Below are positions 34,323 to 37,833 of a DNA stretch of 64,000 nucleotides, piece after piece. This stretch comes from an uncultured Bacteroidales bacterium (GTDB lineage Bacteria > Bacteroidota > Bacteroidia > Bacteroidales > UBA932), in NCBI GenBank assembly GCA_905235085.1, contig CAJOKD010000008.1:50682-114681 (forward strand), read 5' to 3'. The position numbers and the translations under genes are program-made. Each line of letters begins with the position of its first letter. Position 1 is the stretch's first letter. The notes beneath the pieces are model-generated. The model saw nothing but the letters and a program-made list of their open reading frames with translations, did no database searches and was not told where the DNA came from.

Positions 34323-35033
34323 TCATCTGGCCATATAGCGTTTCCGTTCATTTTCGGGAAACTTTTCGATGGCGTACCTCAGCATAGTCCGTGGCATTTT
34401 GCGGCAGCGGGGCTCCAGCCAGGCAACGAGAGCGGTCTTGTCACGCTTCCCGGCTTCCCTGAGCAGCCAGCCTACGGCCTTATGGATCAAGTCGTGAGGG
34501 TGGTTCAGAAAGATATCGGCGATTGCGAACGTATCTGCTGTCTGTCCCTTCCGAATGAAGGCCATCGTGCTCACTATCCCTATCCTTTGTTCCCAGATTG
34601 TCTTCCCATTGCTGGCGAGTTCATACAGGATGGACCTGTCCTTATCCATGAGCCATTCCCCGAGCAGGGAATAGCAGGACAGGTCGACCAGGTCCCAGTT
34701 GTTGATCGCTTGGGTATGTGAGAGATAGAAATCGATGCAATCCTTCCTGGACACCCCGGTCTTTGCCGAATGTTTGAATATCTCCACCAAGGTGAGCAGG
34801 GCGGCAAGGCGGACTTCGTGATATTCGCTGGAGAGGCATTCCTCCAGTTCGGGGAAGCCGGCAGAGCGCCAGCAATCTTTCACGACGGACCTTGTCACCG
34901 GGACCTTGATTCCAAGGAACTTGTCACCTTCTCCGTATTGGCCTTTGCCGGTTTTGAAGAAGCGTGAAAGGCCTTCCACCTGAGAGGGGTCGGCCGAGTC
35001 TAGCATATGTTTCAGAAGTATATTGTCGTTCAC
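34323..35033 (-). CDS. AlkD-like DNA alkylation repair HEAT-repeat protein
   Basis: 236 residues, normal for AlkD-like glycosylases. Signature stretches are FLGIKVPVTRSVVKDCW, RLAALLTLVEIF, DFYLSHTQAINNWDLVDLSC and DLIHKAVGWLLREAGKRD. The family removes positively charged alkylated bases from DNA. NWDLVD supplies the Trp/Asp pair used in AlkD. Single gene between the carbonic anhydrase and a divergent lipoprotein gene. Confidence 0.9.
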   Translation of the reverse strand: MNDNILLKHMLDSADPSQVEGLSRFFKTGKGQYGEGDKFLGIKVPVTRSVVKDCWRSAGFPELEECLSSEYHEVRLAALLTLVEIFKHSAKTGVSRKDCIDFYLSHTQAINNWDLVDLSCYSLLGEWLMDKDRSILYELASNGKTIWEQRIGIVSTMAFIRKGQTADTFAIADIFLNHPHDLIHKAVGWLLREAGKRDKTALVAWLEPRCRKMPRTMLRYAIEKFPENERKRYMAR

Positions 35034-35486: not shown

Positions 35487-36692
35487 CTATAGTTTATTCC
35501 TGTATAGGTAATATTCGTGTACCAGGCTGCGGTAGCCAAGGGATTTCAAGTCCTTGTACCGCAGCCGGTAATTTGCTTTATTATGCCTGCCCGTCGAAAG
35601 GAACCGTATATATTGCTGCAGGTACCGGTCTATTTCTCTTAGGCCTTCTGTCCTGTTGATGACGGGGAAGAACCACCTGGACCAGCTCAGCGAATCGGGA
35701 TCCTCGCTTTCGAACAGTTTTCCGTTGAACTTCCTTATCAATGCTCCGGCGGCCTTGCCGGTATCGATGCCCTTGATGCTGCTCCAACGGTGGAGAGAGC
35801 GTGCAGCACGCCGGATCTTGCCCTTCATCTTGCTCCGCACCGCCGTCGATATGTCAATTGCCTCTCCCAGGCACCTGAAGCCCAGGAATTCAAAGGGTTC
35901 GTCCGGAGGGTAAATCCTTTCCTTGTCGGGATTGACCTCCAATCCGTATTCCTTCAGATAACCGAGCAAGGCGGCCTTGTGGACTTCCAGTTCTTCCTTG
36001 TCGGGAGCGAATAGGATGATGTCGTCCGAATATCTGGCATATACTACTCCGGCTTCCTCGAAATGCCGGTCCACCTCCATCAAGTACACATCGGCCAGGA
36101 ACGGGGATGTCGGCGTACCCGCCATCACACCTCTGTTTTCCTGGATTATCTTTCCGTCGGAAAGTGCCCTACCATCGGTCAGTATCCTCTCGAAGAAAGC
36201 ATAGAGAGGCGGGTCGTCCGCCAGCATTTCCTTGAGTATTGGGAGAAGTTTGGGGATTGAAATGGAATTGAAGTAATCGTGGATGTCGAGTTTGTAGGCC
36301 CACATATTCCTGCCGCGCAGTTCTTTACGCAGACGGAATATAGCATCGCTGGCCTTGATCCCGCGGCGGAAAGAATAGCAGTTGGGGGAAAACCGGTCAT
36401 CGTAGCGATAAAGGAGGAAAGCCATCAGCTTGAGGACTTTTGTCTCGTCGGGAGGGAAGCAGTATATCGTCCGTTTCTTTCCCGTCCCCATCTTGTTTAT
36501 CTGCTTCTTTTCCGGGATGCCCAGACCTTCGCCGCTCAAGATGTCACGTACGGCAGGGATATATCTCTCATTACCGACCCAGTCGTCCGCATCACTGAAC
36601 ATAGGCCAGTTGAAACGACCTTTAACCAGGCGGTGAGCGAGGAATTCCTCCCAAACCGCCTGGCTGTCGAGCTGAAAGATAATGCTTTGCAT
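35487..36692 (-). CDS. Reverse transcriptase of unassigned class
   Basis: 401 residues. RT blocks in order: KRTIYCFPPDETKVLKLMAF (block 1/2), NCYSFRRGIKASDAI, WAYKLDIHDYFNSISIPKLL (catalytic Asp, block 3), RGVMAGTPTSPFLADVYLME (block 4), YARYSDDIILFA (YSDD catalytic block 5), LEVNPDKERIY and FEFLGFRC (blocks 6-7). No maturase or HNH endonuclease domain can be recognised. The VTG and NAxxH signatures of retrons and the SQ of diversity-generating RTs are lacking. The C-terminal 130 residues are helical and unassigned. It could be one of the 'unknown group' or defence-associated RTs. A structured 132-base element ends 8 bases before its ATG. Confidence 0.88.
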   Translation of the reverse strand: MQSIIFQLDSQAVWEEFLAHRLVKGRFNWPMFSDADDWVGNERYIPAVRDILSGEGLGIPEKKQINKMGTGKKRTIYCFPPDETKVLKLMAFLLYRYDDRFSPNCYSFRRGIKASDAIFRLRKELRGRNMWAYKLDIHDYFNSISIPKLLPILKEMLADDPPLYAFFERILTDGRALSDGKIIQENRGVMAGTPTSPFLADVYLMEVDRHFEEAGVVYARYSDDIILFAPDKEELEVHKAALLGYLKEYGLEVNPDKERIYPPDEPFEFLGFRCLGEAIDISTAVRSKMKGKIRRAARSLHRWSSIKGIDTGKAAGALIRKFNGKLFESEDPDSLSWSRWFFPVINRTEGLREIDRYLQQYIRFLSTGRHNKANYRLRYKDLKSLGYRSLVHEYYLYRNKL

Positions 36693-36700
36693 AAAGAAAA

Positions 36701-36832
36701 GAAAAAGGGGAATGATTTTGAATCAGCAAAATTGCTGATCACCGGACGGGGACATCATCCTGCCGCCTGCAAGGCATTGTTATGGTGATGCTGCGTCCTT
36801 CGCAGGCGCAACTGTGTTGCATCCCCTTTTTC
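36701..36832 (-). ncRNA. Structured RNA candidate upstream of the reverse transcriptase
   Basis: An exact 11-base inverted repeat (GAAAAAGGGGA at 36701-36711, TCCCCTTTTTC at 36822-36832) encloses three further inverted repeats. They are GCAAC-TGT-GTTGC (36808-36820), CGCCTGC.AAGG...CCTT.CGCAGGCG (36764-36808, one bulge) and ATCAGCAA..TTGCTGAT (36722-36739). On the RT strand this would fold as a closed multi-branch RNA. It fills almost the whole gap between the upstream stop (36839) and the RT ATG (36692). It could be a template or cofactor RNA for the RT, or a cis-acting leader; the identity as an ncRNA is inferred. Confidence 0.5.
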
Positions 36833-36838
36833 AGATTG

Positions 36839-37351
36839 CTATCCCAGAAACCTGTGGATGCGGCTTGCTACATATCCGCGTTCGTTCGGCATCTGAGTGT
36901 AGAAGTTGATGTAAGGAATGCCGATCTTCTTGGCATACATCCTGGCTATCAGGTACTTCACATTCGCATCGTGGCTGTGACCGCTTCCCAGCATCACGAC
37001 TCCCTTGGGTGATTCACCCTGGAACAGGACGAAGGAATATGGCTCTCCCCATTCTGCCTTGTAAACCTGGAGCGGACGGGATCTGTAGAGTTTGGCCTCA
37101 TCGGCGGCGTTGCCGGCGAGTTCGGTTACTGGCACATTCTCGCGTACCTCATATCCGGGGCACTCCGACTGGATGATGCCGCGGAAATAGTCGCGCCACT
37201 CCACGGCGGTTTTCTCCTGGACAGGAGCCGAATCGTAGGAAGGGGAGTACGAAGGCTTAGGCTTGGCCTCGGACTCTTGCTTGGTGGCCAGCTCCTGGGC
37301 AACGGATGCTACTTTGCCGGCAATCTCGAACAAATTCTTTAATAGGCTCAT
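36839..37351 (-). CDS. Hypothetical protein upstream of the RT
   Basis: 170 residues, no signal peptide. The N-terminal 50 residues are low complexity (KPKPSYSPSYDSAPV). The C-terminal 120 form a compact domain with VEWRDYFRGIIQSECPGYEVRENV, QVYKAEWGEPYSFVLFQGE and AKKIGIPYINFYTQMPNERGYV. The second part is reminiscent of small nuclease-like folds, but no catalytic motif can be named. It shares strand and probably a transcript with the RT. Function unknown. Confidence 0.7.
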   Translation of the reverse strand: MSLLKNLFEIAGKVASVAQELATKQESEAKPKPSYSPSYDSAPVQEKTAVEWRDYFRGIIQSECPGYEVRENVPVTELAGNAADEAKLYRSRPLQVYKAEWGEPYSFVLFQGESPKGVVMLGSGHSHDANVKYLIARMYAKKIGIPYINFYTQMPNERGYVASRIHRFLG

Positions 37352-37407: not shown

Positions 37408-37833
37408 CTACAGCGATTTCCCGAAAAAGAAAAACCACGCCGCTCGCTTGGCGGGAACCCCGTCTACGTGGCCGATTGTCCTGTAAGACGCATCCTGAAT
37501 TGTTCCGCCGGACTTCACATAGCCTATCGTCCTGTATCCTGAATCCTGTACGGTGCCATTGCCCTTTATGTATCCCAGGGTGCGGTATGACGCATCCTGT
37601 ACGGTTCCGTCGCCCTTGAGGTATCCGATGGTCCGGTAAGACGAGTCCTGTATCCTTCCGTCAGCATTGAAATAACCCACGGTCCTGTAAGAGCCGTCTT
37701 GAATTGTGCCGTCCGACTTGATATATCCGACAGTCCTGTATCCCGAGTCCGTGATACGCTGGGCGTGGATCGCGGTTCCTGCAACGAGGAAACAGAGCAC
37801 GAAGAATATGCCCGATATGAACTTATTCATCAC
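37408..37833 (-). CDS. Exported protein of six 17-residue repeats (beta-flower-like)
   Basis: 141 residues with a signal peptide (FISGIFFVLCFLVAGTAIHAQ). The mature part consists almost only of repeats of IQDSSYRTIGYLKGDGT type, about six copies of 17 residues (51 bases). Each has a conserved YRTxGYxKxDG core, and a short tail follows. I recall this repeat from small Bacteroidota proteins called 5-fold beta-flower, but treat that as tentative. Likely periplasmic or surface; role unknown. Repeat copies differ at many third positions, so they are not a recent expansion. Confidence 0.8.
   Translation of the reverse strand: MMNKFISGIFFVLCFLVAGTAIHAQRITDSGYRTVGYIKSDGTIQDGSYRTVGYFNADGRIQDSSYRTIGYLKGDGTVQDASYRTLGYIKGNGTVQDSGYRTIGYVKSGGTIQDASYRTIGHVDGVPAKRAAWFFFFGKSL

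What the first reader, a model, noticed from the sequence alone, without database searches (positions are those of the whole stretch)
36693..36838. Closed multi-branch RNA-like element directly upstream of a reverse transcriptase
An exact 11-base inverted repeat (GAAAAAGGGGA / TCCCCTTTTTC) encloses three smaller hairpins in 132 bases and fills almost the whole 146-base gap, 8 bases before the RT start. RTs of several defence systems and retrons use a structured RNA encoded immediately upstream. The RT lacks retron, DGR and maturase signatures, so this may be a separate RT-plus-RNA system. The outer stem and inner arms are seen in the sequence; the role is inference.
Basis: partly seen in the sequence, partly recalled or inferred. 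Interest (0 to 1): 0.75.

Follow-up and report, generated by a model that had tools for sequence, protein, structure and literature searches.

The report
Pseudoknotted RNA partner of UG26 reverse transcriptase
The stretch before this bacterial reverse transcriptase encodes a real, strongly conserved folded RNA, already catalogued as 'RT-5' but without a known job; it always travels with this enzyme, so the two probably work together, most likely as an anti-virus system that copies the RNA into repetitive DNA.

Summary
The region is a member of Rfam family RT-5 RNA (RF03026, 90.1 bits), and the RT is a UG26-class enzyme (PADLOC E=8e-157). It is conserved at all 77 intact homologous loci with compensatory changes, down to RTs only about 32% identical. 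I also found a pseudoknot (GCCUGC with GCAGGC) in which five of six pairs show compensatory changes. In 295 Bacteroidales genomes RNA and RT co-occur 10 of 10, and no credible RNA lacks an RT. At one locus trkA and trkH sit between the RNA and the RT, so it is not a simple cis leader. A ~170-aa RTasCOG2852-like protein lies directly upstream of the RNA in all 77 close relatives but is absent from a deep clade. By architecture it works like ncRNA-dependent Class 2 UG systems (DRT9, DRT10, DRT3a). However, no DRT10-type A-B-A' pattern, DRT9-type U template or SLATT partner was found, and neither cDNA nor phage defence could be tested.

The parts
36701..36832 (-). Whole structured RNA as defined by the closing stem (132 nt). 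Rfam RT-5 (RF03026) matches its core, 36709-36811.
   Evidence: cmscan 90.1 bits, E 1.3e-16; own covariance model 143.3 bits; single copy in the genome.
36822..36832 (-). P1 5' strand, GAAAAAGGGGA (outer stem; outside the Rfam model)
   Evidence: 97.3% of cells paired over 78 loci, 4 pairs with changes on both sides; 97.0% and 9 of 11 pairs compensatory when divergent loci are included.
36701..36711 (-). P1 3' strand, TCCCCTTTTTC
   Evidence: Same as P1 5' strand.
36808..36820 (-). P2 hairpin (GCAA...UUGC)
   Evidence: 98-100% paired, 2 compensatory pairs in the close set, 3 of 4 in the deep set.
36802..36807 (-). Pseudoknot 5' strand, GCCUGC
   Evidence: Pairs with 36765-36770: 99.8% of cells over 78 loci; 97.9% with 5 of 6 pairs compensatory in the deep set, e.g. 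GCCUUC/GAAGGC, GCUUUC/GAAAGC, GCCCGC/GCGGGC, ACCUGC/GCAGGU.
36765..36770 (-). Pseudoknot 3' strand, GCAGGC, in the 8-nt loop of P5
   Evidence: As above.
36744..36798 (-). P3-P4-P5 arm: P3 36795-36798/36744-36747; P4 36784-36791/36752-36760; P5 36773-36776/36761-36764; variable loop 36777-36783
   Evidence: P3 98.7%, P4 94.1%, P5 92.3% paired; 2, 6 and 3 compensatory pairs.
36722..36739 (-). P6 hairpin (AUCAGCA AUUU UGCUGAU)
   Evidence: 93.6% paired, 6 of 7 pairs with changes on both sides.
36712..36721 (-). Junction J6/1, UCAAAAUCAU: invariant UCAAA, usually 10 nt; candidate template loop by position (after the last hairpin, before the closing stem). Inference.
   Evidence: UCAAA invariant in A3; length and sequence table; positional analogy to the DRT9/DRT10 template loops. 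A-B-A' enrichment tested and not found.
35487..36692 (-). UG26 reverse transcriptase, 401 aa, active-site YSDD 221-224
   Evidence: PADLOC RT_UG26 E 8.4e-157 over residues 3-399; Pfam RVT_1 only; D136, D223 and D224 invariant in 65 homologues; AF2 pLDDT 91.9.
36839..37351 (-). U1: 170-aa partner protein with an N-terminal amphipathic stretch and a compact C-terminal domain; RTasCOG2852-like
   Evidence: Directly upstream in 77 of 77 intact relatives, the only conserved neighbour; PADLOC RTasCOG2852 in 44 of 49 members; AF2 C-terminal domain pLDDT above 90; found only in genomes that also have the RT in a 295-genome scan.

Best explanation
The element encodes a ~132-nt noncoding RNA (RT-5 family) that is the dedicated RNA partner of the downstream UG26 reverse transcriptase. 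Shown here: conserved pseudoknotted structure, obligate co-occurrence with the RT, conserved intact RT active site, and a third gene (U1) in one large clade. Inferred: the RT binds the RNA as a ribonucleoprotein; P1, P2, the P3-P5 pseudoknot arm and P6 scaffold the enzyme; and a short single-stranded segment, most likely J6/1 (UCAAA...), is copied, probably repeatedly and protein-primed, into cDNA, as in the Class 2 UG systems DRT9, DRT10 and DRT3a. U1 would sense or execute the response as SLATT does for DRT10. The likeliest biological role is phage defence.
For: Rfam RT-5 hit. UG26 assignment, with UG17 (=DRT10), UG27, UG4 and DRT9 the next-best named UG groups. RNA at 77 of 77 intact close loci and at all 9 other RT loci of the order scan, RTs 32-64% identical. 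No RNA without an RT in 295 genomes apart from two closing-stem-only, terminator-like hits. Covariation including the pseudoknot. RNA and U1 separated from the RT by trkA-trkH at one locus and by inserts of up to about 170 nt at others, so the RNA acts as a separate molecule. Foldseek: after group II intron and G2L4 RTs, the RNA-dependent DRT9 and DRT2 are the best DRT matches. Characterised Class 2 DRTs use ncRNA templates in a loop after a stem-loop (PMC12632851, PMC12483538, PMC13174585).
Against: DRT10's A-B-A' template signature is not enriched either in the variable P4/P5 loop (24 loops with repeats of 3 or more against 19.2 expected, p = 0.09) or in J6/1 (11 against 9.0, p = 0.27). No universally conserved U tract as in DRT9. 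No SLATT partner. The window's tested neighbours are not defence genes. In one genus RNA and RT sit at a syntenic site between yggS and the same downstream genes with 54-63% RT identity, which suggests vertical inheritance unusual for defence genes. No RT-like match in phages or plasmids at UG26-like identity. UG26 was not placed in a phylogeny here. No expression or activity data.
Confidence: 0.6

Rival explanations
1. The RNA is an obligate structural or allosteric cofactor of the RT but not its template; DNA synthesis is untemplated or copies another RNA, with the pseudoknot RNA driving assembly or activation.
For: No A-B-A' signature and no conserved homopolymer. ncRNA-driven oligomerisation is known for DRT9 (PMC12489045).
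Against: All characterised Class 2 relatives with an ncRNA copy it (PMC13174585). J6/1 has an invariant core and near-constant length, as expected of a template.
Confidence: 0.22
2. A role other than phage defence (for example a housekeeping or stress RNP) carried by the same RT-RNA machinery.
For: Syntenic chromosomal site across one genus; no neighbouring defence genes in the window; absent from phage, plasmid and viral-contig collections.
Against: Patchy distribution, about 3% of Bacteroidales genomes, and different neighbours at nearly all other loci, as in horizontally moving defence genes; UG RTs are a defence-rich family.
Confidence: 0.2
3. A cis-acting leader (attenuator or riboswitch) controlling translation or transcription of the RT.
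For: Usually ends 6-16 nt before the RT start.
Against: Inserts of up to about 170 nt and a whole trkA-trkH pair separate RNA and RT with the RNA intact; invariant unpaired motifs and the pseudoknot persist to about 32% RT identity. Rfam types it as a gene/sRNA.
Confidence: 0.06
4. A retron-like msr-msd RNA, with P1 as the a1/a2 repeat and cDNA joined to the RNA by a 2',5' branch.
For: Inverted repeat flanking a structured RNA just upstream of an RT.
Against: RT lacks NAxxH and VTG (0 in the window protein; 3 and 1 of 56 members); NCBIfam retron models far below cut-off; best-scoring RT family is UG26 by about 400 bits.
Confidence: 0.04
5. A degenerate group II intron or DGR remnant.
For: Foldseek's best match is a group II intron RT; TIGR04416 scores 115.9 bits.
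Against: TIGR04416 cut-off is 300; no intron RNA in Rfam; no TR/VR repeats; intact conserved RT and purpose-made RNA in many species.
Confidence: 0.02

Closest known systems
Rfam RF03026, RT-5 RNA
   Same: The core of the element (36709-36811) matches the whole 104-position model at 90.1 bits.
   Different: The closing stem P1 and hairpin P2 lie outside the model, and the pseudoknot is not in the nested structure shown by cmscan. The seed annotation could not be viewed, so the pseudoknot may be noted there. Rfam's copy gives no function.
UG26 reverse transcriptases (PADLOC 'DRT', PDLC03764)
   Same: Full-length match, E 8e-157.
   Different: The group is catalogued only; I found no paper in the held library that describes its function or links it to RT-5.
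DRT10 (UG17 + SLATT + ncRNA)
   Same: RT plus structured ~137-nt ncRNA with a large stem carrying smaller stem-loops, plus a small third protein (PMC12632851).
   Different: Partner is RTasCOG2852-like, not SLATT; the RNA lies between the partner and the RT rather than upstream of the partner; A-B-A' not enriched; a pseudoknot is present.
DRT9 (UG28 + ncRNA)
   Same: RT plus ncRNA; a late loop in the RNA as template; DRT9 is among the best Foldseek DRT matches.
   Different: No universally conserved U tract; RT is about 90 aa shorter; the word pseudoknot does not occur in the two DRT9 papers read.
Telomerase RNA and TERT (distant analogy)
   Same: RT with a dedicated pseudoknotted RNA; Class 2 UG RTs are the proposed kin of TERT (PMC12632851).
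   Different: No templating or repeat addition shown; analogy only.

Membership tests
Rfam RT-5 RNA (RF03026) | Score above the curated gathering threshold over the whole model | tested here: met
   90.1 against 45.7 bits, positions 1-104 of 104.
UG26 reverse transcriptase | Full-length profile match clearly better than to any other RT group | tested here: met
   520 bits against 115 for the next model; residues 3-399 to 2-397/398.
Class 2 UG/Abi system with ncRNA (DRT9/DRT10-like) | Single RT domain without HEAT-like repeats, catalytic YxDD intact | tested here: met
   Pfam RVT_1 only; YSDD in 56 of 56; D136, D223, D224 invariant in 65.
Class 2 UG/Abi system with ncRNA (DRT9/DRT10-like) | Conserved structured ncRNA at the locus | tested here: met
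Class 2 UG/Abi system with ncRNA (DRT9/DRT10-like) | Phylogenetic placement in Class 2 | tested here: inconclusive
   Profile ranking and Foldseek point that way, but no tree was built; the Bacteroidales RTs fetched as comparators were mostly group II intron RTs.
Class 2 UG/Abi system with ncRNA (DRT9/DRT10-like) | RNA-templated repetitive cDNA and phage defence | not testable with these tools
   Needs RIP-seq, cDNA sequencing and plaque assays.
DRT10 | A-B-A' pattern in the template loop | tested here: not met
   No enrichment in the variable loop (p = 0.09) or in J6/1 (p = 0.27).
DRT10 | SLATT partner | tested here: not met
   The only conserved neighbour is U1, with no SLATT hit in Pfam or PADLOC.
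DRT9 | Universally conserved unpaired U tract | tested here: not met
   Alignments A3 and A4 show none.
Protein-primed UG RT | Conserved C-terminal Tyr/Ser primer near the active site | tested here: inconclusive
   Y379 is invariant in 65 RTs, and a Tyr is present at Y394/Y395 in the sequences inspected; the geometry was not examined.
Retron | Retron RT motifs NAxxH and VTG, retron RT model | tested here: not met
Group II intron / DGR | Intron RNA, or TR/VR repeats | tested here: not met
COG2852-type nuclease (for U1) | PD-(D/E)XK fold with catalytic acids | tested here: inconclusive
   RTasCOG2852 match in 44 of 49 members, best E 7e-8; element order compatible with the fold but no significant Foldseek hit (best such, 4qbn VRR_NUC, prob 0.28); I see no acidic residue in the corresponding strand, so it may be a dead nuclease.

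The most novel reading that the evidence does not exclude
UG26 plus RT-5 RNA is an uncharacterised telomerase-like ribonucleoprotein: a pseudoknotted RNA whose J6/1 segment is the template for tandem-repeat cDNA, coupled in one clade to a catalytically degenerate nuclease-fold protein as sensor or effector instead of SLATT.
Probability: 0.3. Interest if true: 0.75.

Novelty: new member of a known kind. Interest (0 to 1): 0.5.

Why it matters
RT-5 RNA and UG26 RTs are each catalogued, but I found no paper in the held library that gives either a function or joins them. Showing that they are one obligate unit, with a pseudoknot and a third gene, turns two orphan entries into one testable candidate defence system. 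It also adds an independent lineage for asking how generally Class 2 UG enzymes use RNA templates, and whether the pseudoknotted RNA architecture known from telomerase is found among its proposed bacterial kin.

Tried and rejected
A-B-A' template signature in the variable P4/P5 loop and in J6/1: an apparent AUUC...AUUC repeat in the window and some distant members looked striking by eye but is explained by P1 pairing and base composition. Hairpin ACAT/ATGT in the variable loop: seen by eye in one clade only, not conserved. Retron, DGR and group II readings. cis-leader reading. Two extra model hits, L097 and L098, are closing-stem-only terminator-like hairpins. Viral contigs gave one 30%-identity RT fragment without the RNA; plasmids and phages only remote RTs, group II, retron-type or unannotated. 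An RT tree was attempted through Drt2, UG17 and Drt9 searches, but the Bacteroidales hits were mostly group II intron RTs, so no tree was made. Mestre 2022 and Weinberg 2017, the likely sources for UG26 and RT-5, are not held, so I cannot say whether they already link the two. Nothing was learned about expression.

Full report
What was checked. The gap 36693-36838 lies between two genes on the minus strand, a 170-aa ORF (36839-37351, here U1) and a 401-aa RT (35487-36692). The gap folds better than every one of 200 dinucleotide shuffles (z = -4.33).

Identity. cmscan against Rfam 15 gives one hit in the whole 64-kb window: RT-5 RNA, RF03026, 36709-36811 minus, 90.1 bits against a 45.7-bit gathering score. 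The RT is RT_UG26 in PADLOC (E 8e-157; the next model is 405 bits lower), listed there under DRT; the next-best named UG groups are UG17 (DRT10), UG27, UG4 and DRT9. The RNA and the RT are therefore catalogued families, and the finding is not a new RNA class.

Structure and covariation. A genome scan gave 80 homologous RT loci, all from uncultured Bacteroidales or related MAGs, 60-92% identical. All 77 loci with enough upstream sequence have the RNA, including the outer stem. On the 78-sequence alignment 96.3% of cells pair, 26 of 44 pairs show changes on both sides, and no shuffle reaches any of the five measures; sliding the partners drops pairing to about 48%. The outer stem P1 (97.3% paired) and hairpin P2 lie outside the Rfam model. 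A pseudoknot between GCCUGC (36802-36807) and the P5 loop GCAGGC (36765-36770) is 99.8% paired. With divergent members it changes in concert to GCCUUC/GAAGGC, GCUUUC/GAAAGC, ACCUGC/GCAGGU, GCCCGC/GCGGGC and GCCCGU/ACGGGC (5 of 6 pairs compensatory). Caveat: alignment A4 was fitted to the nested structure, but not to the pseudoknot, and A3 was aligned by sequence only.

Depth and linkage. In 295 Bacteroidales genomes 10 carry a UG26 RT at E <= 1e-40. The other nine RTs are 32-64% identical to the window's, and all nine have the RNA: eight directly upstream, and in G505 the RNA and U1 lie about 3 kb upstream, separated from the RT by trkA and trkH. No convincing RNA was found without an RT (the two weak extra hits are closing-stem-only hairpins). 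Several other loci have inserts of up to about 170 nt between RNA and RT. The RNA therefore behaves as a separate molecule tied to the RT, not as a cis leader.

The third gene. U1 is the only conserved neighbour among the 80 close loci: 77 of 77 intact loci, always directly upstream and on the same strand. It matches PADLOC's RTasCOG2852 in 44 of 49 members. AlphaFold gives a confident C-terminal domain with alpha-beta-beta-beta-alpha-beta order but no significant Foldseek match. Its first ~18 residues are amphipathic in 40 of 51 members (p < 0.05 each). U1 occurs in 5 of 295 genomes, all with the RT, and was not found at the loci of the deep clade L087-L091, so the minimal unit is RNA plus RT.

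Mechanism. The Class 2 UG systems DRT9, DRT10 and DRT3a use the ncRNA as template, from a loop after a stem-loop, to make repetitive cDNA (PMC12483538, PMC12632851, PMC13174585). By position the equivalent here is J6/1 (36712-36721), with an invariant UCAAA and a length of about 10 nt. I tested the DRT10 A-B-A' signature there and in the variable loop and did not find it above chance, so the template assignment rests on position and conservation only. RT catalytic residues are invariant, so the enzyme should be active. The AlphaFold model resembles group II intron RTs first, then G2L4, DRT9 and DRT2. Conserved C-terminal tyrosines are possible protein primers, untested.

Context. The genes tested around the RT are not known defence genes. 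In one genus RNA and RT sit at a syntenic site between yggS and the same downstream genes, with 54-63% RT identity, pointing to long vertical inheritance there; elsewhere flanks differ. Phage, plasmid and viral collections hold no close UG26 relative. Phage defence is therefore the most likely role by family but not established.

Verdict. Novelty is limited because RT-5 and UG26 are catalogued. What this work adds is the obligate pairing, the outer stem, the pseudoknot and the partner gene. The sources that might already state the pairing (Mestre 2022, Weinberg 2017) were not held.

Noticed in passing
window 37408-37833 (-): Pfam 5-fold beta-flower protein (Bflower_2, E 5.5e-35) made of 51-nt tandem repeats (17 residues, SYRTIGYIK.DGTIQD); shared only with the nearest relative L003.
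   Followed up: partly
L100 2003-6387 (genome G505): trkA and trkH lie between the ncRNA and its RT, with U1 and RNA left together upstream.
   Followed up: yes
L023, L024, L028, L035, L036, L038, L039, L083, between RNA and RT: Short repeat-like inserts containing GACACGAGACACGG...CCCGTGTCTCGTGTCTC-type sequence separate RNA from RT while the RNA stays intact; possibly a small mobile repeat.
   Followed up: no
L103, L104, L105: In one genus RNA and RT sit at a syntenic site between yggS and the same downstream genes, suggesting vertical inheritance of an RT-RNA unit.
   Followed up: partly
window 34323-35033 (-): DNA alkylation repair enzyme (Pfam DNA_alkylation, E 4.9e-56) downstream of the RT; shared only with L003.
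   Followed up: no
L032 2848-2996: One homologue carries a 5-nt insertion (CGCCT duplication) just 5' of the pseudoknot strand, possibly a natural variant useful for testing spacing.
   Followed up: no
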